Shown: positions 1 through 22,166 of the stretch, piece by piece | Numbering within the stretch: position 1 is the first letter of the stretch | How the letters are laid out: every line of letters starts with the position of its first letter | Origin: Halodesulfovibrio spirochaetisodalis | GTDB taxonomy: Bacteria; Desulfobacterota; Desulfovibrionia; Desulfovibrionales; Desulfovibrionaceae | Reading direction: 5' to 3' | DNA: 44,663 bases | Assembly (NCBI RefSeq): GCF_001672295.1 | Contig: NZ_JXMS01000031.1 | Span: 32,564-77,226 of the forward strand | Notes under the pieces: generated by a model | The model's database searches: none | Told to the model about the DNA's origin: nothing | Seen by the model: the letters and a program-made list of their open reading frames with translations, nothing else | Position numbers and translations under genes: made by a program

Positions 1-77
1 TGGCGGGGATGGGAAGATTCGAACTCCCGACCAACTGGTTCGTAGCCAGGTACTCTATCCAACTGAGCTACATCCCC
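1..77 (-). tRNA. tRNA-Arg(ACG), copy 1
   Basis: The minus strand folds as a 77-nt tRNA. The acceptor stem starts GGGGATG, the discriminator is G and the CCA end is encoded at 3-1. The anticodon loop CTACGAA gives anticodon ACG, which reads CGN arginine codons once A34 is deaminated to inosine. The 77 bases are identical to the copies at 302-378 and 586-662. The CCA sits on the window edge, so any terminator lies outside. Confidence 0.97.
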
Positions 78-160
78 GCATGATCCCTGAAAGACAGCAA
101 TGTTTTGAATCAATCAGGTTTCTGGAAATTTGTTTGTGACCTTCCGTCACAGCGAGAGGG

Positions 161-189
161 GGTATATGTCCAACCCTCATCAAGGTCAA
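161..189 (-). promoter_or_regulatory. sigma70-type promoter of tRNA-Arg copy 1
   Basis: On the minus strand a TTGACC -35 box (189-184) and a TATACC -10 box (166-161) are 17 bp apart, about 85 nt upstream of the tRNA. A GTGAC/GTCAC inverted repeat (136-150) lies in the predicted leader. This is a consensus match only. Confidence 0.6.
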
Positions 190-265
190 GCAGTTTTTCA
201 AAAAAACTTTTGAGTAAACTCATGTAGTGCGCTAGCTGTGATTACTTTCTCTTTGGAAGAAAAAC

Positions 266-288
266 GCCTGTCAGAAAAACTGACAGGC
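266..288 (-). terminator. intrinsic terminator after tRNA-Arg copy 2
   Basis: A perfect 9-bp stem, GCCTGTCAG/CTGACAGGC, has a 5-nt loop and is followed on the minus strand by a T-run (plus-strand A-run at 261-264). It lies 13 nt past the end of tRNA copy 2. Confidence 0.85.
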
Positions 289-301
289 AGAATAATCTAA
301 A

Positions 302-378
302 TGGCGGGGATGGGAAGATTCGAACTCCCGACCAACTGGTTCGTAGCCAGGTACTCTATCCAACTGAGCTACATCCCC
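302..378 (-). tRNA. tRNA-Arg(ACG), copy 2
   Basis: This is a second 77-nt copy identical to copy 1, with the same CTACGAA anticodon loop, discriminator G and encoded CCA. The upstream spacer (379-585) differs completely from those of the other copies, and I could not place a convincing -35/-10 pair in it. A terminator hairpin follows at 266-288. Confidence 0.97.
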
Positions 379-556
379 GCACTCGATCATGCTACTTCCG
401 CGCATTGCTGCGTTACTTCAAAAACGTCACCCTCTCACATATGTAGTATATGCTTCGATCTTGCCGTTTTTTCGTGCCTTGCACTGCACGAAATTATCAT
501 AATCGTATATATAATGATGTTTCCATCATTTGGGGAGGGCATATTACCCTCAAAAA

Positions 557-575
557 GCGTCTGCGTAGCAGTCGC
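557..575 (-). terminator. intrinsic terminator after tRNA-Arg copy 3
   Basis: On the minus strand, arms GCGACTGC and GCAGACGC (one mismatch, loop TAC) are followed by a T-run (plus-strand A-run at 552-556). It lies 10 nt downstream of tRNA copy 3. Confidence 0.7.
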
Positions 576-585
576 ATATAATCAA

Positions 586-662
586 TGGCGGGGATGGGAA
601 GATTCGAACTCCCGACCAACTGGTTCGTAGCCAGGTACTCTATCCAACTGAGCTACATCCCC
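586..662 (-). tRNA. tRNA-Arg(ACG), copy 3
   Basis: This is the third identical 77-nt tRNA-Arg(ACG). A strong promoter lies upstream (695-723) and a terminator hairpin downstream (557-575), so it looks like an independent transcription unit rather than part of one polycistronic array. Confidence 0.97.
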
Positions 663-15379: not shown

Positions 15380-15455
15380 ATTCTGTTTTACAGACAGTGA
15401 TACATAGTATCGCATACTACAGAATGCTCTAGTTTGATTATTCTGTGTATTTTTA

Positions 15456-15490
15456 CCCTGTTATGTTTTCGAGCATAACAGGGTTTTTTT
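15456..15490 (+). terminator. intrinsic terminator of ppiC
   Basis: CCCTGTTATG (15456-15465)/CATAACAGGG (15474-15483) is followed by T7. A second, weaker GAGGTT/AACCTC hairpin lies at 15491-15510. Confidence 0.92.
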
Positions 15491-15529: not shown

Positions 15530-15558
15530 TTGACAAGCTCTGTAAATTCTTTTTAAGA
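15530..15558 (+). promoter_or_regulatory. candidate promoter of the ridA cluster
   Basis: A perfect TTGACA -35 box (15530-15535) lies 17 bp before a weak TTAAGA -10 (15553-15558). It precedes the palindromes at 15576-15602. The weak -10 makes this tentative. Confidence 0.45.
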
Positions 15559-15575
15559 CGAAATCACGCCGTGTG

Positions 15576-15602
15576 AAATGTCGACATTTTACATGTCGTA
15601 AA
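15576..15602. promoter_or_regulatory. paired palindromes upstream of ridA, candidate GntR operator
   Basis: AAATGTCGACATTT (15576-15589) is a perfect 14-bp palindrome. It overlaps TTTAC-ATGTC-GTAAA (15588-15602), a second inverted repeat. The core TGTCGACA has the GT..AC half-sites usual for FadR/FCD GntR regulators. The site lies just past the predicted promoter, where a repressor would block. A GntR/FCD gene closes the same cluster at 21495. Confidence 0.5.
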
Positions 15603-15641
15603 GCAGCAAATATAATTCCAACCAGTGAAACTGGAGACAAC

Positions 15642-16031
15642 ATGTCTACAAAAAAACCAATTTTTTCTGAGAAAGCGCCTGCAGCTGTAGGTCCTTACTC
15701 CCAAGCCATTGAGTCTGACGGCTTTGTGTTCGCATCCGGCATGCTGCCGATCGACCCTGCAACCGGTAACATGCGTGAAGGCACTATCGCTGACAGAGCG
15801 CATCAGGCTCTCACAAATCTTAAGGCTGTAGCAGAGTCTGCTGGCTGCACACTTGAAGATGCTGTGAAAACCACCGTATTTCTCACCGACGTTAATGATG
15901 GCAAAGAAGTTAACGCGGTATATGCAGAATATTTCAGCGAACCGTTTCCGGCTCGCAGTGCGTTTCAGGTAGCTGCTCTTCCGCTTGGAGCAGACATCGA
16001 AATTGAAGTTATTTTCCGTAAAAAAAACTAA
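15642..16031 (+). CDS. ridA: RidA family 2-iminobutanoate/2-iminopropanoate deaminase
   Basis: The 129-residue RidA/YjgF protein hydrolyses enamine and imine intermediates such as 2-aminoacrylate, which PLP enzymes release and which damage other PLP enzymes. Family segments are GPYSQAIESDGFVFASG near residue 17, NLKAVAESAGCTLEDAVKTTVFLTD, and PARSAFQVAALPLGADIEIE with the substrate-binding Arg near residue 107. ATG 15642 follows GGAG; the frame extends upstream without a site. It lies 23 nt before the PLP beta-elimination enzyme, whose reaction would make exactly this intermediate. Confidence 0.95.
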   Translation: MSTKKPIFSEKAPAAVGPYSQAIESDGFVFASGMLPIDPATGNMREGTIADRAHQALTNLKAVAESAGCTLEDAVKTTVFLTDVNDGKEVNAVYAEYFSEPFPARSAFQVAALPLGADIEIEVIFRKKN

Positions 16032-16054
16032 CTGTCTTTTAGAAGAGAAAAATT

Positions 16055-17056
16055 ATGAATCTCGCAAAATTTCCTCGTCGTGGCTATGTTTCTACCCCAA
16101 CTCCGCTTGAAGCAGCTCCAGCTTTCTCTGAAGCTCTCGGCGGAAAAGTAAACATCTTCATCAAGCGTGATGACCTTCTTCCAGGTACTTCCGGTGGTAA
16201 CAAAACCCGTAAGCTTGACTTCAGCATGGCTGACGCAATCGAGCAGGGTGCAGACACTATCATTACATGTGGTGCTGTTCAGTCTAACCACTGCCGTCTT
16301 ACCCTTGCATGGGCTGTTAAAGAAGGCATGGATTGTCACCTCGTTCTTGAAGAGCGCGTAAAAGGCAGCTACAAGCCAGAAGGTTCCGGTAACAACTTCC
16401 TCTTCAACCTCCTCGGTGTTAAGAGCACTAAAGTTGTTCCTGGTGGTTCTGACATGATGGCTGAAATGGAAAAAGTAGCTGAAGCTCTTCGTGCAGAAGG
16501 CAAAAAGCCTTACATCGTACCTGGTGGCGCTTCTAACTCCATTGGCGCACTTGGCTACGTTTCTTGTGCACAGGAAATGCAGCAGCAGTTCTTCGACATG
16601 AAGCTCAAAGTTGATCACGTTGTTGTTCCTTCCGGTAGCGCTGGTACCCACGCAGGTATGGCAATCGGTATGTACGCAACCAATTCCGGTATCCCAGTAT
16701 CCGGTATTAACGTGAGCCGTACTAAAGATGTGCAGGAAGCACATGTTTACAAACTCGTTGAAGAAACTGTAGAGCTCATCGGCGATATCAAAGGTGGCGT
16801 ACCAAGCGAAGCAGTAGAGTGCTTTGACTCTTACGTTGGACCTGGTTACTCCCTCCCGACTGATTCTATGATTGAAGCAGTTAAATTGCTTGCACAGACT
16901 GAAGGTATCCTTCTTGACCCTGTATACTCCGGTAAAGCAATGGCTGGTCTTATCGACCTCGTACGTAAAGGCCATTTCCCAGAAGGCTCTAACGTAGTAT
17001 TCTTGCATACCGGCGGTTCTCCTGCTCTGTATGCATACCTCGACACTTTCCAATAG
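16055..17056 (+). CDS. PLP-dependent D-cysteine desulfhydrase / L-cysteate sulfo-lyase family enzyme
   Basis: The 333-residue fold-type II PLP enzyme belongs to the ACC deaminase/D-cysteine desulfhydrase family. Pyridoxal Lys is K50 in GGNKTRKLDF. QSNHCR (76-81), PGGASNSIGALGYV and the phosphate-binding SGSAGTHAGMA follow. TEGILLDPVYSGKAMAGLI and the C-terminal HTGGSPALYAY complete the match. The two known activities are D-cysteine to pyruvate, H2S and NH3 (DcyD), and L-cysteate to pyruvate, sulfite and NH3 (CuyA); I cannot separate them from sequence. RidA upstream and a TRAP transporter downstream favour catabolism of an imported substrate. Codons are strongly biased (CGT, AAC and ATC preferred), suggesting high expression. 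Confidence 0.9.
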   Translation: MNLAKFPRRGYVSTPTPLEAAPAFSEALGGKVNIFIKRDDLLPGTSGGNKTRKLDFSMADAIEQGADTIITCGAVQSNHCRLTLAWAVKEGMDCHLVLEERVKGSYKPEGSGNNFLFNLLGVKSTKVVPGGSDMMAEMEKVAEALRAEGKKPYIVPGGASNSIGALGYVSCAQEMQQQFFDMKLKVDHVVVPSGSAGTHAGMAIGMYATNSGIPVSGINVSRTKDVQEAHVYKLVEETVELIGDIKGGVPSEAVECFDSYVGPGYSLPTDSMIEAVKLLAQTEGILLDPVYSGKAMAGLIDLVRKGHFPEGSNVVFLHTGGSPALYAYLDTFQ

Positions 17057-17073
17057 AAAGTAGCTGAATATAT

Positions 17074-17108
17074 GCCGTGCGGAGAACGTGGACTCCGCAC
17101 GGCATTTT
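17074..17108 (+). terminator. attenuator-like hairpin between the PLP enzyme and dctP
   Basis: A perfect 11-bp GC-rich stem GCCGTGCGGAG/CTCCGCACGGC (17074-17084/17093-17103) has an 8-nt loop and only a short T4 run. It may partly terminate or protect the 3' end of the upstream message. Confidence 0.6.
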
Positions 17109-17142
17109 ATAAAACAACCGAACCTTGTGATAGGAGAGAAGT

Positions 17143-18135
17143 ATGAGAAATGTTAGAATTATGATTCTTGCGCTCGTTGCTGTTCTTATGATTGGCGCAA
17201 CTTCAGCATTCGCTGCACCAAAGGTTATCAAGCTTGCTCACCCTAACGTGCCTCAGCACCCGATGGGAATGGCTTTTGAAAAGTTTAAAGAGCTTGTTGA
17301 AGAGCGCTCTAATGGCAGATACAAAGTTGATATTTACGATAGCTCTAAATTCGGTAACTTCGATAGCGTAGTACAGGGTCTGCAGCTTAACATGCTTCAG
17401 ATGGGTTCTGCATCTACCCCTAACCTTGCTCCGTTCTCTGACGAGTTCCTTATCTTTGACCTTCCGTTCCTGTTCCCTTCCTACGAAGCAGCAGATAAAA
17501 TTACAGATGGTCCTATTGGTATGAACGCAACTAAAGCTCTTGAGCCTTCCGGCATCATTGGTCTCGGCTACATCGAGATCGGTTTCCGTAACCTCTGGAA
17601 CAACCAGAAGCCGGTAAAAACCCTTGAAGATGCTAAAAACCTCAAAATCCGTTCTACCCCTTCAAAAGCACACATCGCTACATTGCGTGCTCTTGGTATG
17701 AACCCAACTCCAGTATCCTGGGGTGAAGTATACACAGCACTTCAGCAGAAAACTGTTGATGGTATCGACATTGACCTTAACCTCGCATGGCACAACAACT
17801 TCCCAGAGGTTAACAACAACCTGACTATCGTTAACAGCCTTTACAGCCCTCACCTCGTGATGATGTCTAAGCGCTTCCTCGACAGCCTTAGCGATGAAGA
17901 TAAGGTTATGATCCTTACTGCATTCGAAGAAATCAAACTTTACGAGCGTAAGCTTGTTCGTGACGGCGAAAAAGAAATTCTTACCAAACTCGCTGATAAA
18001 GGTGTTACTGTTGTAAAACTCACTCCTGAAGAGCGCGCTCGCTGGGCTGCTGCATCTGCAGGTGTTTACAAAGAGTTTGAAGACCGCATCGGTAAAGACC
18101 TTATCGAAAAAGCAAAAGCAACTGTAGCAGAATAA
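17143..18135 (+). CDS. dctP: TRAP transporter substrate-binding protein (DctP family)
   Basis: The 330-residue periplasmic binding protein belongs to a tripartite ATP-independent transporter. A signal peptide covers residues 1-24 (cleavage after AFA). The DctP pattern follows: VIKLAHPNVPQHPMGMAFEK, ERSNGRYKVDIYDSSKFG, the FRNLWNN segment carrying the carboxylate-binding Arg near residue 149, and LKIRSTPSKAHIATLRALGMNPTPV near residue 167. The conserved Arg implies a carboxylate ligand, which suits cysteate or another amino or organic acid. GGAG precedes ATG by 8 nt. Codon bias is very strong, and a stable hairpin follows the gene. Confidence 0.95.
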   Translation: MRNVRIMILALVAVLMIGATSAFAAPKVIKLAHPNVPQHPMGMAFEKFKELVEERSNGRYKVDIYDSSKFGNFDSVVQGLQLNMLQMGSASTPNLAPFSDEFLIFDLPFLFPSYEAADKITDGPIGMNATKALEPSGIIGLGYIEIGFRNLWNNQKPVKTLEDAKNLKIRSTPSKAHIATLRALGMNPTPVSWGEVYTALQQKTVDGIDIDLNLAWHNNFPEVNNNLTIVNSLYSPHLVMMSKRFLDSLSDEDKVMILTAFEEIKLYERKLVRDGEKEILTKLADKGVTVVKLTPEERARWAAASAGVYKEFEDRIGKDLIEKAKATVAE

Positions 18136-18147
18136 TTGTATTGAGTT

Positions 18148-18173
18148 CTGCCGGCCGCCTCAGCGGCCGGCAG
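18148..18173 (+). promoter_or_regulatory. very stable intercistronic hairpin after dctP
   Basis: CTGCCGGCCGC (18148-18158)/GCGGCCGGCAG (18163-18173) is a perfect 11-bp stem, nearly all G-C, with a CTCA loop and no T-run. It looks like a 3' stabiliser that keeps binding-protein mRNA in excess over the permease genes. Confidence 0.7.
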
Positions 18174-18188
18174 GCTTAAGGAGAATGC

Positions 18189-18689
18189 ATGTCTCAAAAA
18201 GGTAAATCGTATTTGGCACGTTTTGAGGAAATCTTCTCATCGTCTTGTCTTGTTGTAATGACAATTCTCATCGCGGTGCAGGTTTTCTCACGATACGTTC
18301 TTGAATATTCTTTCGAATGGTCTGAAGAGTTAGCCCGCTACTTATTCATCTGGGCTGTTTATGTAGGCTGTAGCTATGCAACCAAAGAAGACAAACACCT
18401 TGAGGTGACAATCTTCCGTACCATTTGCGGCGGTCGTTTAGCTAAACCGGTTACGTTGCTTTCCTATGTATTTACTGCAATCTTTTGTTTTGCATGTACA
18501 TGGTGGGGTGTGGAAATGCTTCAGTTCCTCATTAAAACCGGTCAGAAAACTCCAGCATTGGAAATCAAAATGTACTGGGTTTTCCTTAGCCTTCCATTTG
18601 GCATGTTCCTGATGGGACTGCGTACAGTAGAAAGAATTATCGGCGTGGCAACTGGTAAAATTGATCCAGTTCCTTCCGCGGAAGTATAG
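18189..18689 (+). CDS. dctQ: TRAP transporter small permease (DctQ family)
   Basis: The 166-residue inner-membrane protein has four predicted transmembrane helices (near residues 15-35, 50-70, 90-112 and 128-150). The DctQ signature EWSEELARYLFIWAVYVGCS and the AtKEdkHLEV-type segment are present. It pairs with DctM to form the Na+- or H+-coupled permease. AAGGAG lies 5 nt before ATG. It starts 53 nt after dctP and ends 11 nt before dctM. Confidence 0.93.
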   Translation: MSQKGKSYLARFEEIFSSSCLVVMTILIAVQVFSRYVLEYSFEWSEELARYLFIWAVYVGCSYATKEDKHLEVTIFRTICGGRLAKPVTLLSYVFTAIFCFACTWWGVEMLQFLIKTGQKTPALEIKMYWVFLSLPFGMFLMGLRTVERIIGVATGKIDPVPSAEV

Positions 18690-18700
18690 AGGCTTATCTC

Positions 18701-19972
18701 ATGGAATTTACAATTTTAATTATTTTTGCATCCCTTGCATTCTTCCTGTTACTCAGTGTGCCTATCGGCATTGCAATCGGGCTTTGTGTAGCAGTCGGGA
18801 TTGTCTTCGGTGACATGCTTCCGCCGGCTTTCCTTGTTCAAAAAATGATCACATCCCTTGATGTTTTCCCTCTTATGGCTGTGCCATTCTTTATTATGGC
18901 AGGGGAAATCATGCAGAAAGGGAGTATGGCTCAGCGCTTACTTAAAGTTTCCCACAGCTTTGTAGGACATGTTACCGGTGGTATGGCACATATCTCTGTT
19001 TTAACAAGCATGTTCTATGGTGCTCTTTCCGGTTCTTCTCCGGCAACTGTTGCTGCTGTTGGTGGCATCATGGTTCCTGCTATGGTTAAAGAAGGCTACA
19101 GCCGTCGCTTTGCTGCTGCGGTTAACACTTCTGCAGGTTGCCTTGGTGTTATGATTCCACCTAGTGTACCTCTTATTATTTACGGCACAACAGCTGGTGT
19201 TTCTGTAGGTGACCTCTTTATCGCAGGTGTAGTTCCGGGTATTTTTGTTGGTGTCTGTCTCATGGCTTGCAGCTACGTTATTGCCAAACGCCACGGCTAT
19301 GGTGGTGGTGAGCGTGCGACATTTATGGAACGTATCACAGCTCTTCGTGAAGCAGTTGTAGCACTCATGGTTCCGCTTATCGTACTCGGCGGTATTTACG
19401 GTGGTCTTACAACTCCGACAGAAGCTGGTGTTATTGCAGTAGTATATGCATTCATTGCAGAGGGGCTCGTTCTTCGTACCCTGAGCTGGCAGAAAGTATG
19501 GGATATCTTCCGTAACACAGCTATTACTTCAGCATCCATCTTTATCGTAGTAGCAACAGCAACTGCGCTTGGTCAGATTCTTTTATTCTATAATGTACCT
19601 GACATGCTCGTTGAAGTGCTCGTAGGAATCTCTGACAATAAATATGTTCTGATTCCAATCATTCTGGTATTCCTTCTTATTATGGGTACCTTCATGGACG
19701 CGCTGGCTAACATCCTTATTCTGACACCGCTGCTTCTGCCTGTTATGAAGCACCTCGGAATGGATCCAATCCACTTCGGTATTGTTATGATCGTAGCTGC
19801 GTCTATGGGCTTCTTGACTCCGCCTGTTGGTGTTAACCTCTTCGTCGGTTGCAGCATCAGTAACTTGAGTATCGAGAAACTCAGTGTAGCGGTACTGCCG
19901 TTCCTGTTCACAATGTGTATTGCACTTCTGGCAATCACCTTTATTCCGTGGCTTTCTTTGGGACTTCTCTAG
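18701..19972 (+). CDS. dctM: TRAP transporter large permease (DctM family)
   Basis: The 423-residue integral membrane protein has about twelve hydrophobic helices and provides the transport pathway. Typical DctM stretches are VPFFIMAGEIMQKG near residue 66, FYGALSGSSPATVAAVGGIM near residue 105, GVMIPPSVPLIIYGTTAGVS near residue 150, LTTPTEAGVIAVVYAF and MGFLTPPVGVNLFVGCSI. A terminator hairpin (19995-20022) begins 22 nt after the stop. Confidence 0.95.
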   Translation: MEFTILIIFASLAFFLLLSVPIGIAIGLCVAVGIVFGDMLPPAFLVQKMITSLDVFPLMAVPFFIMAGEIMQKGSMAQRLLKVSHSFVGHVTGGMAHISVLTSMFYGALSGSSPATVAAVGGIMVPAMVKEGYSRRFAAAVNTSAGCLGVMIPPSVPLIIYGTTAGVSVGDLFIAGVVPGIFVGVCLMACSYVIAKRHGYGGGERATFMERITALREAVVALMVPLIVLGGIYGGLTTPTEAGVIAVVYAFIAEGLVLRTLSWQKVWDIFRNTAITSASIFIVVATATALGQILLFYNVPDMLVEVLVGISDNKYVLIPIILVFLLIMGTFMDALANILILTPLLLPVMKHLGMDPIHFGIVMIVAASMGFLTPPVGVNLFVGCSISNLSIEKLSVAVLPFLFTMCIALLAITFIPWLSLGLL

Positions 19973-19994
19973 AATACGCCGCAATGAATACATA

Positions 19995-20022
19995 CGGGGG
20001 GGATATTGTCCTCCCCGTTTTT
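19995..20022 (+). terminator. terminator or attenuator just before the 407-residue gene
   Basis: CGGGGGGGA (19995-20003) pairs with TCCTCCCCG (20009-20017; one G-U pair, loop TATTG), followed by T5 (20018-20022). The next gene starts at 20030, so its ribosome site GAGG lies immediately beyond the T-run. Read-through would be needed to express that gene from the TRAP message. Confidence 0.75.
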
Positions 20023-20029
20023 GAGGATT

Positions 20030-21253
20030 ATGCAAGAATATTCAATAAGCAAAAGTTCCGAAGCCGTAGGGTTGTTCGGTATTATGGGGCACGCTGGTGC
20101 GGGGCATGTGCATAGTCATTCCGGCTTTATTCAAGATGATACAGCCGGTTTTGCTGTTACTGTAACCCTTATGGCGCAGGCATATCCTGTTGATTTGACC
20201 ATTGCATCAGTGACTGTACAAGGTGACTGGTTTACCGTGACAACGGTAGACGGCGGTATTGGCAAAGCTTATGCTCGCAGGGGCATTACTCCTTACGAAG
20301 CTGATATTGCAAACCGCGTAGTTGGTACTGATGCTGTCTATAACCAGCTGTCTGTTTTGACTGCGTTTGGCAGGATTTACGGGCAGGGGGTAACAGAAGT
20401 ACCTGTTGCTTTACAGACCGCTATTTGTCATGCGGTAATGAATACTTTCGTAACGCAGTATCCTGATGAATTTTTCTATGAAGTCGAGGGACTGAAAGGT
20501 ACCTGTGGCGGTTGCCTCGGAACTGTCCTCGCAATCAACGATACACCTGTGTCTGTTGTAGCAACGCTGAATGCTGCAGCAGGTGGAACAGGGCCGATCG
20601 AAGATGCTGAAGGCAACCTTGCCTATGGTGGCAAACAGGTTGTTATGAAACGCCTTCGTCTGGAGGAATTGCCTACCATTATTCTGGAAAGTAAAGCCTA
20701 TGTTCCTGCTGTCTGTAGTGATTTAAGCTCGGACGTTATGTGGGTTCGCTATAATGAAGAAGTTGATAATCCTGAAGTTGGGAAGGCTCTTTGTTGTGGT
20801 GGGCATGATGCAAAGGTGACGACTATGTCTTCCAATGCTGCGTATGTGCGAAATGCAACTGAATTGGAAGCTATGACGCAGCAGACAGGCAAGCGTATCG
20901 CTGAACTTGGTAACGCATTAGCAGCGTCACAGTCTTCAGAAGAAAAGGTTGCTATCGTCAGCAAGCTTGCAGAGCTTGTGAGCCAGGATGCTGGTGGTGT
21001 AACTTTTATGAGCAACACACTGCATGCGCTTGTCGGAGGCGGTGGATTGCAACCGGGAATGACTGCTGTTCTTTCCATGGCAGTTTGTGGTGAAAATATT
21101 AGACGCGATTGTATTCCTGCTGTCTCATCTTCTGATGTTGAGGCTTACCTGAAGGTGGTAGTTGCGGCCACACCGCATTTGATTGCAGCGCTTGATGAGG
21201 CTTTGCAGTTGGTTCGTGTTCGTAAGGTTGAACTGCCGCAGGGCACTGTATAA
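20030..21253 (+). CDS. unrecognised 407-residue protein of the TRAP/PLP cluster
   Basis: I do not recognise this family. The protein has no signal peptide or membrane segment. A histidine-rich N-terminus reads GHAGAGHVHSHSG (H21, H26, H28, H30). TVDGGIGKAYARRGITPYEAD lies near residue 72, a GTCGGCLG motif near C159/C162, GGTGPIEDAEGN near residue 185, ILESKAYVPA near residue 218, and LCCGGHD with C255, C256 and H259. These suggest a metal or Fe-S enzyme. ATG 20030 is chosen because a possible TTG at 20006 lies inside the terminator hairpin, although GAGG is only 3 nt before this ATG. Placed between dctM and a GntR gene, it probably acts on the transported substrate. Confidence 0.8.
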   Translation: MQEYSISKSSEAVGLFGIMGHAGAGHVHSHSGFIQDDTAGFAVTVTLMAQAYPVDLTIASVTVQGDWFTVTTVDGGIGKAYARRGITPYEADIANRVVGTDAVYNQLSVLTAFGRIYGQGVTEVPVALQTAICHAVMNTFVTQYPDEFFYEVEGLKGTCGGCLGTVLAINDTPVSVVATLNAAAGGTGPIEDAEGNLAYGGKQVVMKRLRLEELPTIILESKAYVPAVCSDLSSDVMWVRYNEEVDNPEVGKALCCGGHDAKVTTMSSNAAYVRNATELEAMTQQTGKRIAELGNALAASQSSEEKVAIVSKLAELVSQDAGGVTFMSNTLHALVGGGGLQPGMTAVLSMAVCGENIRRDCIPAVSSSDVEAYLKVVVAATPHLIAALDEALQLVRVRKVELPQGTV

Positions 21254-21494
21254 TTTTCGTAACTGTTTTTTTCTGCTGCAGGCTGAGCAGCATGCTGACG
21301 ATATCTTGTATTGAATAAATATTAGAAGATATTTGCATAGGTATACTAACTTTATTATAAGAAACTGCCCCTTAACAAGGGACAAAACCATATAGCGTGG
21401 TGTCGGATGCAAGCTGTATTTAGTTGTGGGAACTAATGCTGTATTCGTTCCATAATATAATAATCTCGAGAGTGAGCTTGGTAGAAGGAAGAAT

Positions 21495-22166
21495 ATGTCC
21501 GCCGTAAAAACTTATAGCGAACAAATTATTGTTTACATTAAAGACGCCATCCTTACCGGAAAATTGCATCCAGGGGATAAGGTGAATGAAGTTGTCGTGG
21601 CTACAGAGTTGTCGATTAGCCGCGCCCCAGTGCGTGAAGCGCTGCAGATGCTGGTAAAAGAAGGTCTTATTACCTCTATTCCCCAGCGTGGTAAATTTAT
21701 TACTGCGCTCACTGCCAAACAGATTAAGGACAGCTATTTTACAGGCGGAGTTCTTGAAGGCGCGGCAGTAGCATCCACCATAGACAAATTCACAGTACAG
21801 GATTTTCAGAAACTCGAAGCCGTTGTCGGCGAGATGAAGAAGGTTGCGGACTGTGGAGAGAACGGTACATCAATGGCCGAACTTGATGACCGTTTTCACG
21901 ATATCTTGTTCTCCAAGAATGAAAATGAGCTTATTGGTGAGCTTGCACGTCGGTCTTGTCAGGGCATCTCTAAATTCCTGCTCTTCCGTTACTGGAAAAA
22001 ACTGTTCACTTTGCAGGGAATTTATGAACGTCACAAAATGTTGCTTGATGTTTTGCTTACCAAAGACTGTGTGGCAATTGAAAAAACTCTGCGTGAACAC
22101 TATATCGAATCCGGAGACCGAATGGCACGGTACGGTGTAGATGTTCTGGAGGATGAAGACGCTTAG
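21495..22166 (+). CDS. GntR-family regulator with FCD effector domain
   Basis: The 223-residue FadR-subfamily regulator has a winged helix at residues ~5-72 (YIKDAILTGKLHPGDKVNE; ISRAPVREALQMLVKEGLI; QRGKFIT) and an all-helical FCD ligand domain at ~80-210. Metal-ligand positions are visible as D128/H132-type residues in ELDDRFHDIL and later His residues. Such proteins usually repress a nearby catabolic operon and are released by a carboxylate metabolite. Its likely site is the palindrome pair upstream of ridA. It follows the 407-residue gene by 241 nt. Confidence 0.93.
   Translation: MSAVKTYSEQIIVYIKDAILTGKLHPGDKVNEVVVATELSISRAPVREALQMLVKEGLITSIPQRGKFITALTAKQIKDSYFTGGVLEGAAVASTIDKFTVQDFQKLEAVVGEMKKVADCGENGTSMAELDDRFHDILFSKNENELIGELARRSCQGISKFLLFRYWKKLFTLQGIYERHKMLLDVLLTKDCVAIEKTLREHYIESGDRMARYGVDVLEDEDA

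What the first reader, a model, noticed from the sequence alone, without database searches (positions are those of the whole stretch)
15530..22166. A candidate sulfur-amino-acid catabolic unit: ridA, PLP beta-eliminase, TRAP transporter, unknown protein, GntR
Seven genes on one strand combine uptake (dctPQM), a D-cysteine desulfhydrase/L-cysteate sulfo-lyase-type enzyme, RidA to remove 2-aminoacrylate, an orphan 407-residue protein and an FCD regulator. In a sulfite-respiring host, L-cysteate would supply both pyruvate and sulfite. The enzyme and dctP genes use a very restricted codon set (CGT, AAC and ATC dominate), which suggests high expression and a major substrate. The substrate itself is inferred.
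Basis: partly seen in the sequence, partly recalled or inferred. Interest (0 to 1): 0.8.

Follow-up and report, generated by a model that had tools for sequence, protein, structure and literature searches.

The report
Cysteate operon with unknown enzyme family
A sulfate-reducing bacterium carries an operon that probably imports the sulfonated amino acid cysteate and splits it into pyruvate, ammonia and respirable sulfite, and one gene in it belongs to an unnamed protein family that may be a new kind of racemase for acidic amino acids.

Summary
The seven genes are real and co-directional. The PLP enzyme passes NCBI's CuyA model (529 bits, cut-off 450) and fails the three D-cysteine desulfhydrase models; E. 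coli DcyD fails the CuyA model (405). The host, genus Halodesulfovibrio by contig match, has dsrA. A cysteate-respiration operon is the best reading. The 407-residue 'orphan' has no Pfam or NCBIfam family but has relatives in 77 named loci of bacteria and archaea. A transporter gene lies directly upstream in 66 of 77 and an asparaginase gene directly downstream in 31; CuyA-linked members are not one clade. In CuyA operons without it, an Asp/Glu-type racemase often fills the slot. I infer a non-homologous racemase of cysteate/aspartate-like amino acids. Against this: the host also has an unlinked CuyB, and no fold match was obtained. The AlphaFold model is very confident (pLDDT 96) but could not be searched.

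The parts
15455..15484 (+). terminator-like hairpin before the unit
   Evidence: consensus scan only
15576..15589 (.). perfect palindrome AAATGTCGACATTT, candidate operator for the GntR regulator (its GT-N2-AC core resembles FadR/FCD-type operators as recalled)
   Evidence: exact once in the window; a second site needs 2 mismatches; chance mean 0.26 at up to 2 mismatches, 3 of 100 shuffles had 2 or more; an overlapping 21-mer is identical upstream of ridA in 3 other genomes of the genus (L020, L021, L022)
15588..15616 (+). promoter-like site upstream of ridA
   Evidence: 5 sites found against 10.5 in shuffles, so weak evidence
15642..16031 (+). ridA, Rid-family enamine/imine deaminase
   Evidence: TIGR00004 159.3 bits, cut-off 106.25 (scanned from 15573)
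16055..17056 (+). cuyA, PLP-dependent D-cysteate sulfo-lyase
   Evidence: NF052482 528.9 bits, cut-off 450; 52.0% identity to the R. pomeroyi DSS-3 megaplasmid enzyme, 44.7% to an E. coli DcyD
17143..18135 (+). dctP, TRAP solute-binding protein
   Evidence: PF03480; best PDB hit 8t9t isethionate-binding protein, 216 bits; R149, R170, S91, N94, W193, H237 match IseP ligand-site residues, I146, I210, F73 do not
18189..18689 (+). dctQ, TRAP small permease
   Evidence: PF04290
18701..19972 (+). dctM, TRAP large permease
   Evidence: PF06808, TIGR00786
19996..20015 (+). hairpin between dctM and the orphan, possible partial terminator or processing site
   Evidence: the stem is kept in 3 other genomes of the genus (L020-L022)
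20030..21253 (+). orphan: unnamed family, inferred racemase of cysteate/aspartate-type amino acids
   Evidence: no Pfam/NCBIfam match; family contexts; model pLDDT 96.2
21495..22166 (+). GntR/FCD regulator, inferred regulator of the unit
   Evidence: PF00392, PF07729
22286..22311 (+). terminator-like hairpin after the unit
   Evidence: consensus scan only

Best explanation
The unit is a cysteate uptake and desulfonation operon. DctPQM imports cysteate (inferred). The 407-residue orphan interconverts the enantiomers so that L-cysteate becomes D-cysteate (inferred). CuyA splits D-cysteate into sulfite and 2-aminoacrylate/imine, which becomes pyruvate and ammonia (family assignment shown here; reaction from established knowledge and PMC11382572). 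RidA hastens the hydrolysis of the enamine/imine (established role of the Rid family). Sulfite enters the host's dissimilatory sulfite reductase (dsrA shown; flux inferred). The GntR regulator binds a palindrome before ridA (inferred). The orphan founds a racemase family not homologous to CuyB, used for cysteate in some operons and for aspartate or asparagine in operons with asparaginase.
For: CuyA: NF052482 528.9/450 while the three DcyD equivalogs score 283-316 against cut-offs 429-610; controls behave: R. pomeroyi 553, E. coli DcyD 405, an ACC deaminase 324. Co-occurrence in 149 genomes of the family: orphan in 19, CuyA over cut-off in 39, both in 18, Fisher 1.4e-11; leaving out the 9 genomes with both in one locus, 9 of 10 against 21 of 130, p 2.8e-6; TRAP-type unlinked only, 6 of 7, p 4e-4. 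The exception G067 has only CuyA fragments near contig ends. Phylum draw of 395: orphan 2 (one is the host), CuyA 15, both 2. Slot: transporter gene directly upstream of the orphan in 66 of 77 named loci. A PF01177/CuyB-type racemase sits in the same kind of place (SDF-racemase-cuyA in 9 loci; own genome dctPQM-CuyB). Within 2.5 kb of cuyA: racemase in 0 of 10 orphan-bearing CuyA loci and 20 of 46 others, p 0.0095. CuyA-linked orphans do not form one clade (AU test); the TauE-type ones nest among asparaginase-type ones, 100/98. Cetobacterium MAG G545 has CuyA and the orphan but no asp_race hit at E 1e-15 (its completeness is not told). Shared substrate class: asparaginase and dicarboxylate/Asp-type (SDF) symporters elsewhere.
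Against: The host has its own CuyB (274 bits, cut-off 190) on another contig beside a different TRAP system, so a second racemase is not needed. Over whole genomes a CuyB-like hit of 160 bits or more (my threshold) is in 10 of 19 orphan genomes and 15 of 21 CuyA genomes without the orphan: the replacement is seen at operon level only. The other six of those 21 have neither, and two genomes (G019, G073) have both a racemase near cuyA and an orphan elsewhere. Counts are not corrected for kinship. The orphan shows no sequence likeness to racemases (hhalign probability 0.9%; one of 58 members has a below-cut-off hit to a mandelate-racemase N-terminal domain, E 0.025) and no conserved cysteine pair. 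No fold match was obtained. In asparaginase-type genomes a racemase step is not obviously required, and 21 of 26 orphan genomes searched already have an asp_race. DctP lacks three IseP contacts.
Confidence: 0.52

Rival explanations
1. Cysteate operon as above, but the orphan is another enzyme for acidic amino acids (for example a lyase, hydrolase or metal-dependent enzyme acting on aspartate, asparagine or cysteate derivatives), and the unlinked CuyB supplies D-cysteate.
For: Host CuyB exists; the orphan's invariant H21, H26, Q35, D37, E191, E194, K202, E220, R240, D246 with no cysteine at 90% would suit a metal or general acid/base enzyme of any class; linkage to asparaginase.
Against: The same kind of slot is filled by Asp/Glu-type racemases in sister operons; several CuyA+orphan genomes (G036, G074, G012, G053, G086) show no CuyB hit at E 1e-20, though G012 (83%) and G053 (79%) are incomplete.
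Confidence: 0.28
2. D-cysteine desulfhydrase unit: the PLP enzyme makes pyruvate, ammonia and sulfide from D-cysteine, for detoxification or sulfur supply.
For: Many plasmid records name such enzymes D-cysteine desulfhydrase, as do the solved relatives 7ysk and 4d97; [quoted passage not shown] the CuyA tree does not push DcyD outside all CuyA.
Against: All three DcyD equivalog models fail and CuyA passes; TRAP with IseP as nearest solved relative; TauE-type exporter beside cuyA and orphan in 4 other loci.
Confidence: 0.1
3. The orphan is an accessory protein of the transporter, not a catabolic enzyme.
For: A transporter gene lies directly upstream in 66 of 77 named loci.
Against: The transporters are of four kinds (TRAP, SDF, an unclassified family, TauE-type); invariant acid/base-type residues look enzymatic.
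Confidence: 0.1

Closest known systems
CuyA/CuyB cysteate dissimilation (Liu et al. 2024, J Biol Chem 300:107371; cited in PMC11382572, original not held)
   Same: CuyA lyase; a cysteate racemase before it; sulfite, pyruvate and ammonia as products (as stated in PMC11382572)
   Different: No CuyB in this operon; an unrelated family occupies the place beside the transporter; RidA and an FCD regulator are in the unit
Ruegeria pomeroyi DSS-3 megaplasmid cuyA cluster (NC_006569.1)
   Same: TRAP transporter genes near cuyA (52.0% identity of the enzyme)
   Different: LysR regulator and a putative sulfate exporter gene; no RidA and no orphan relative annotated in the 11 kb shown (annotation only, not searched)
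IseP isethionate TRAP binding protein (PMC11668362; PDB 8t9t)
   Same: closest solved relative of DctP by sequence; both arginines and Ser95/Asn98/Trp200/His244 equivalents kept
   Different: Tyr153, Asn217 and Asp77 equivalents are Ile, Ile, Phe; the paper describes the two arginines as almost completely conserved in related TRAP binders
E. coli DcyD D-cysteine desulfhydrase
   Same: same PLP superfamily, 44.7% identity
   Different: fails the CuyA model; the window enzyme fails the DcyD models

Membership tests
CuyA (D-cysteate sulfo-lyase) | score over NF052482 cut-off 450 | tested here: met
   528.9 bits, residues 1-333
CuyA (D-cysteate sulfo-lyase) | groups with the R. pomeroyi enzyme apart from DcyD | tested here: inconclusive
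   window in a 99 clade; DcyD joins it at 82, R. pomeroyi outside that node; DcyD branch long
CuyA (D-cysteate sulfo-lyase) | releases sulfite from D-cysteate | not testable with these tools
   needs an assay
DcyD (D-cysteine desulfhydrase) | score over NF003029/NF003030/NF003032 cut-offs | tested here: not met
   283/610, 316/429, 289/469
CuyB (cysteate racemase, asp_race type) | NF052483 or TIGR00035 match of the orphan | tested here: not met
   orphan has no NCBIfam match at E<=1; hhalign to a six-sequence CuyB-type profile 0.9%
CuyB (cysteate racemase, asp_race type) | racemises cysteate | not testable with these tools
   inferred for the orphan from context only
IseP-type sulfonate TRAP binder | sulfonate contacts Ser95, Asn98, Tyr153, Arg156, Arg177, Asn217 | tested here: inconclusive
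   4 of 6 kept (S91, N94, R149, R170), 2 not (I146, I210)
RidA | TIGR00004 over cut-off | tested here: met
   159.3/106.25

The most novel reading that the evidence does not exclude
The orphan founds a new, non-homologous family of amino-acid racemases for acidic amino acids (cysteate, aspartate, perhaps asparagine), with conserved His, Asp, Glu, Lys and Arg but no cysteine pair. It is shared by sulfate reducers, Bacillota, Fusobacteria, Sutterellaceae, Synergistota and Thermoproteota archaea, and was recruited probably more than once into cysteate operons in place of CuyB and into asparagine/aspartate operons beside asparaginase.
Probability: 0.45. Interest if true: 0.65.

Novelty: new variant of a known kind. 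Interest (0 to 1): 0.5.

Why it matters
Cysteate is a sulfite donor for sulfidogenic anaerobes (PMC6278857, passage). PMC11382572 states that the cysteate racemase of R. pomeroyi is unknown (passage), so some CuyA hosts lack an identified racemase. A second racemase family would complete the pathway in hosts such as the Cetobacterium MAG G545, and would give a function to an unnamed family found also in Parasutterella, Turicimonas and Phascolarctobacterium beside asparaginase, where it would predict D-Asp/D-Asn use.

Tried and rejected
Tried without result: close relatives of the orphan in viral contigs; PDB by sequence and by profile, best E 0.4 and 0.031, unconvincing; Pfam over 58 members, only scattered weak hits: 18 families, each in at most 2 of 58, best DUF5714 at 3.5e-4; in the one such member examined, L099, DUF5714 is below its cut-off over 47 residues; hhalign of the orphan against CuyB-type racemases; residues separating CuyA/TRAP-type from asparaginase-type members at my thresholds, none; the unclassified transporter in 200 genomes of one Lachnospiraceae-side family, 2 weak hits; literature on asparaginase/aspartate-racemase clusters, 0 papers with 4 of 5 terms. 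Considered and rejected: that the orphan is itself the desulfonase replacing CuyA, since 18 of 19 orphan genomes of the family also have CuyA over the cut-off. I had expected orphan and CuyB to exclude each other at genome level; they do not; only the operon-level pattern holds. One search covered the genomes of 40 of the 77 named loci; one search covered 26 of those 40. In one search the L092 DctP row lacks nearly all of the shared residues and I did not count it as linked; L063 carries a different TRAP type.
Full report
What is there. Seven + strand genes occupy 15642-22166: ridA, a PLP enzyme, dctP, dctQ, dctM, a 407-residue protein without family, and a GntR/FCD regulator. The gaps are 23, 86, 53, 11, 57 and 241 bases (from the coordinates). 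A terminator-like hairpin precedes the unit and another follows it; a promoter-like site lies before ridA (consensus scans only). A perfect palindrome before ridA overlaps a 21-mer that is identical in three other genomes of the genus. The hairpin between dctM and the orphan is also kept in them, which would fit lower expression of the orphan; codon bias agrees (effective codon numbers 36.2 and 36.7 for cuyA and dctP against 48.7 for the orphan).

Host. The window lies in a 3.6 Mb draft genome. A same-genus contig, G132:C26, has the length of a named Halodesulfovibrio contig with the match at the same place, so the genus is Halodesulfovibrio by that match. dsrA scores 639.5 bits against a cut-off of 392.85, so sulfite reduction is expected.

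The PLP enzyme. It passes the NCBIfam CuyA equivalog and fails the DcyD equivalogs. Controls behave: R. pomeroyi DSS-3 enzyme 553 bits, E. coli DcyD 405, an ACC deaminase 324. Identity is 52.0% to the R. pomeroyi enzyme and 44.7% to the best E. coli DcyD. That the R. pomeroyi megaplasmid gene is the enzyme characterised by Denger et al. 2006 is recalled; the record calls it D-cysteine desulfhydrase. The nearest solved relatives, 7ysk and 4d97, are also named D-cysteine desulfhydrase. The tree puts the window in a well supported clade of CuyA-type enzymes, but E. coli DcyD joins that clade with support 82 while the R. pomeroyi enzyme lies outside, so the tree is inconclusive on family borders.

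Substrate. PMC11382572 (passages, outline and reference list seen) states that CuyB interconverts L- and D-cysteate, that D-cysteate is preferred by CuyA, and that the R. pomeroyi CuyB is unknown; the source it cites, Liu et al. 2024, is not held. [quoted passage not shown] DctP's best PDB relative is IseP (216 bits, with 4p47 close behind at 211). Using the ligand residues in PMC11668362 (passages), the window DctP keeps Ser95, Asn98, Arg156, Arg177, Trp200 and His244 equivalents and lacks those of Tyr153, Asn217 and Asp77. This fits an anionic ligand other than isethionate and does not prove cysteate.

The orphan family. No Pfam or NCBIfam match at E<=1 for the window protein. It occurs in 19 of 149 genomes of the host's family and in 77 named loci (found through two peptide patterns, so a lower bound). 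Contexts of the 77 (L227 left out; neighbours found with small profiles built here): CuyA+TRAP 11, TRAP without CuyA in reach 13, CuyA+TauE 4, asparaginase 32, other transporter without asparaginase seen 12, none of these 5. Directly upstream lies a transporter gene in 66 of 77; directly downstream an asparaginase in 31 and a GntR-like gene in 11; 9 end at a contig edge downstream. Examples checked against Pfam or NCBIfam: asparaginase (PF00710), SDF symporter (PF00375), TauE (PF01925); the ~427-residue transporter-like protein has no Pfam or NCBIfam match, so 'transporter' is inferred from its look.

Link to CuyA. In the 149 genomes, 18 of 19 orphan genomes have CuyA over the cut-off, against 21 of 130 without the orphan (p 1.4e-11); without the nine genomes that hold both in one locus, 9 of 10 against 21 of 130 (p 2.8e-6). 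Three of those ten are asparaginase-type. In genera g1, g8, g36 and g7 both genes are present together in 5, 2, 1 and 1 genomes and both lacking (CuyA judged by the cut-off) in at least 4, 6, 1 and 3 (the lists are cut, so these are lower bounds); g20 and g39 also hold CuyA genomes without the orphan. Of the six genomes of TRAP-type named loci without linked cuyA that I searched, six have CuyA elsewhere; of 22 asparaginase-type genomes searched, three have CuyA over the cut-off. CuyA-linked orphans are not one clade (AU test, p 1.9e-148 under the model; the group was named from context). The four TauE-type members sit in a clade of 19 with 12 asparaginase-type members, support 100/98, and Desulfotignum L063, whose TRAP system is of another type, joins at 98/96. 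Repeated gain is the simplest reading, since the operon layouts differ; repeated loss is not excluded.

The racemase slot. In the family draw, nine CuyA loci without the orphan have the order SDF-type transporter, PF01177 racemase, cuyA, most with a GntR gene after it. NCBIfam has a cysteate racemase model, NF052483; of ten PF01177 proteins scanned, seven pass (229-283 bits; one of them is the host's own unlinked protein) and three fall just short (178-188; cut-off 190). A racemase lies within 2.5 kb of cuyA in 20 of 46 CuyA loci without the orphan (one of the 46, L225, has CuyA below the cut-off) and in 0 of 10 with it (L024 has a 41-bit hit 4.2 kb away). By genome: 2 of 19 against 17 of 32, p 0.0027. 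Eight of the 46 have a contig end close by (L150, L162, L166, L168, L175, L176, L222, L224), and kinship is not corrected.

What speaks against. The host has CuyB (274 bits) beside another dctPQM. At genome level CuyB-like hits of 160 bits or more are found in 10 of 19 orphan genomes and 15 of 21 CuyA genomes without it. So the orphan may be a second racemase with another range, or not a racemase. In the host the architecture dctPQM-CuyB beside dctPQM-orphan is itself a parallel that favours like function, but it is only a parallel. In Clostridiaceae bacterium BRH_c20a the CuyA gene lies beside a racemase gene (with one stop inside the match) while the orphan lies with asparaginase in another operon. 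Of 26 orphan genomes searched, 21 have an asp_race over its cut-off.

Chemistry. Invariant in 58 of 58: H21, H26, Q35, D37, E191, E194, K202, E220, R240, D246 among the polar residues; no cysteine reaches 90%. A two-cysteine mechanism like that of Asp/Glu racemases (recalled) is therefore unlikely; a metal-assisted or Lys/His two-base mechanism is my guess. AlphaFold2 gives mean pLDDT 96.2 and pTM 0.95 from 58 sequences, a mixed alpha/beta protein. Four attempts to search the fold met a full queue and the second library was absent, so the fold is not identified.

Verdict. The operon is a new arrangement of a known pathway with good support for cysteate; the unnamed family is the interesting part. 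No claim is made that it is absent from print: the library searches were made, over open-licence papers only, and the key paper is not held. Further papers seen in passages only: PMC12421959, PMC6278857, PMC9594981, PMC12890257.

Noticed in passing
L185 3811-7549 (G000:C1, about 265810-269548): The host's second dctPQM operon ends in a CuyB-type racemase (274 bits, cut-off 190), the same layout as dctPQM-orphan in the window; its ligand is unknown.
   Followed up: partly
L020 1144-3706; L021 869-3445: Two relatives of the host carry a second cuyA followed by a ~480-residue transporter (PF03553 Na_H_antiporter in L021) directly upstream of the ridA-cuyA-TRAP-orphan unit; the window's genome has one cuyA over the cut-off.
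   Followed up: partly
window 17056-17142: A 13-bp inverted repeat (read by eye) lies between cuyA and dctP without a long T run; it might stabilise or process the mRNA.
   Followed up: no
L075, L076, L091, L109: Three Fusobacteriaceae and one Tissierellia record carry cuyA, a TauE-type exporter and the orphan, suggesting organisms that export sulfite instead of respiring it.
   Followed up: partly
L057 8634-9917, L060 5329-6603: A ~427-residue transporter-like protein with no Pfam or NCBIfam match lies directly upstream of the orphan in asparaginase operons; in several Sutterellaceae it is preceded by a ~850-residue gene and a response-regulator-like gene (by eye).
   Followed up: partly
L099 7822-8076: An open frame near the orphan of a Sulfolobales archaeon reads the same short peptide several times, as a CRISPR-like repeat array would.
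   Followed up: no
window 1-662: Three tRNA-Arg(acg) genes in a row at the window start.
   Followed up: no
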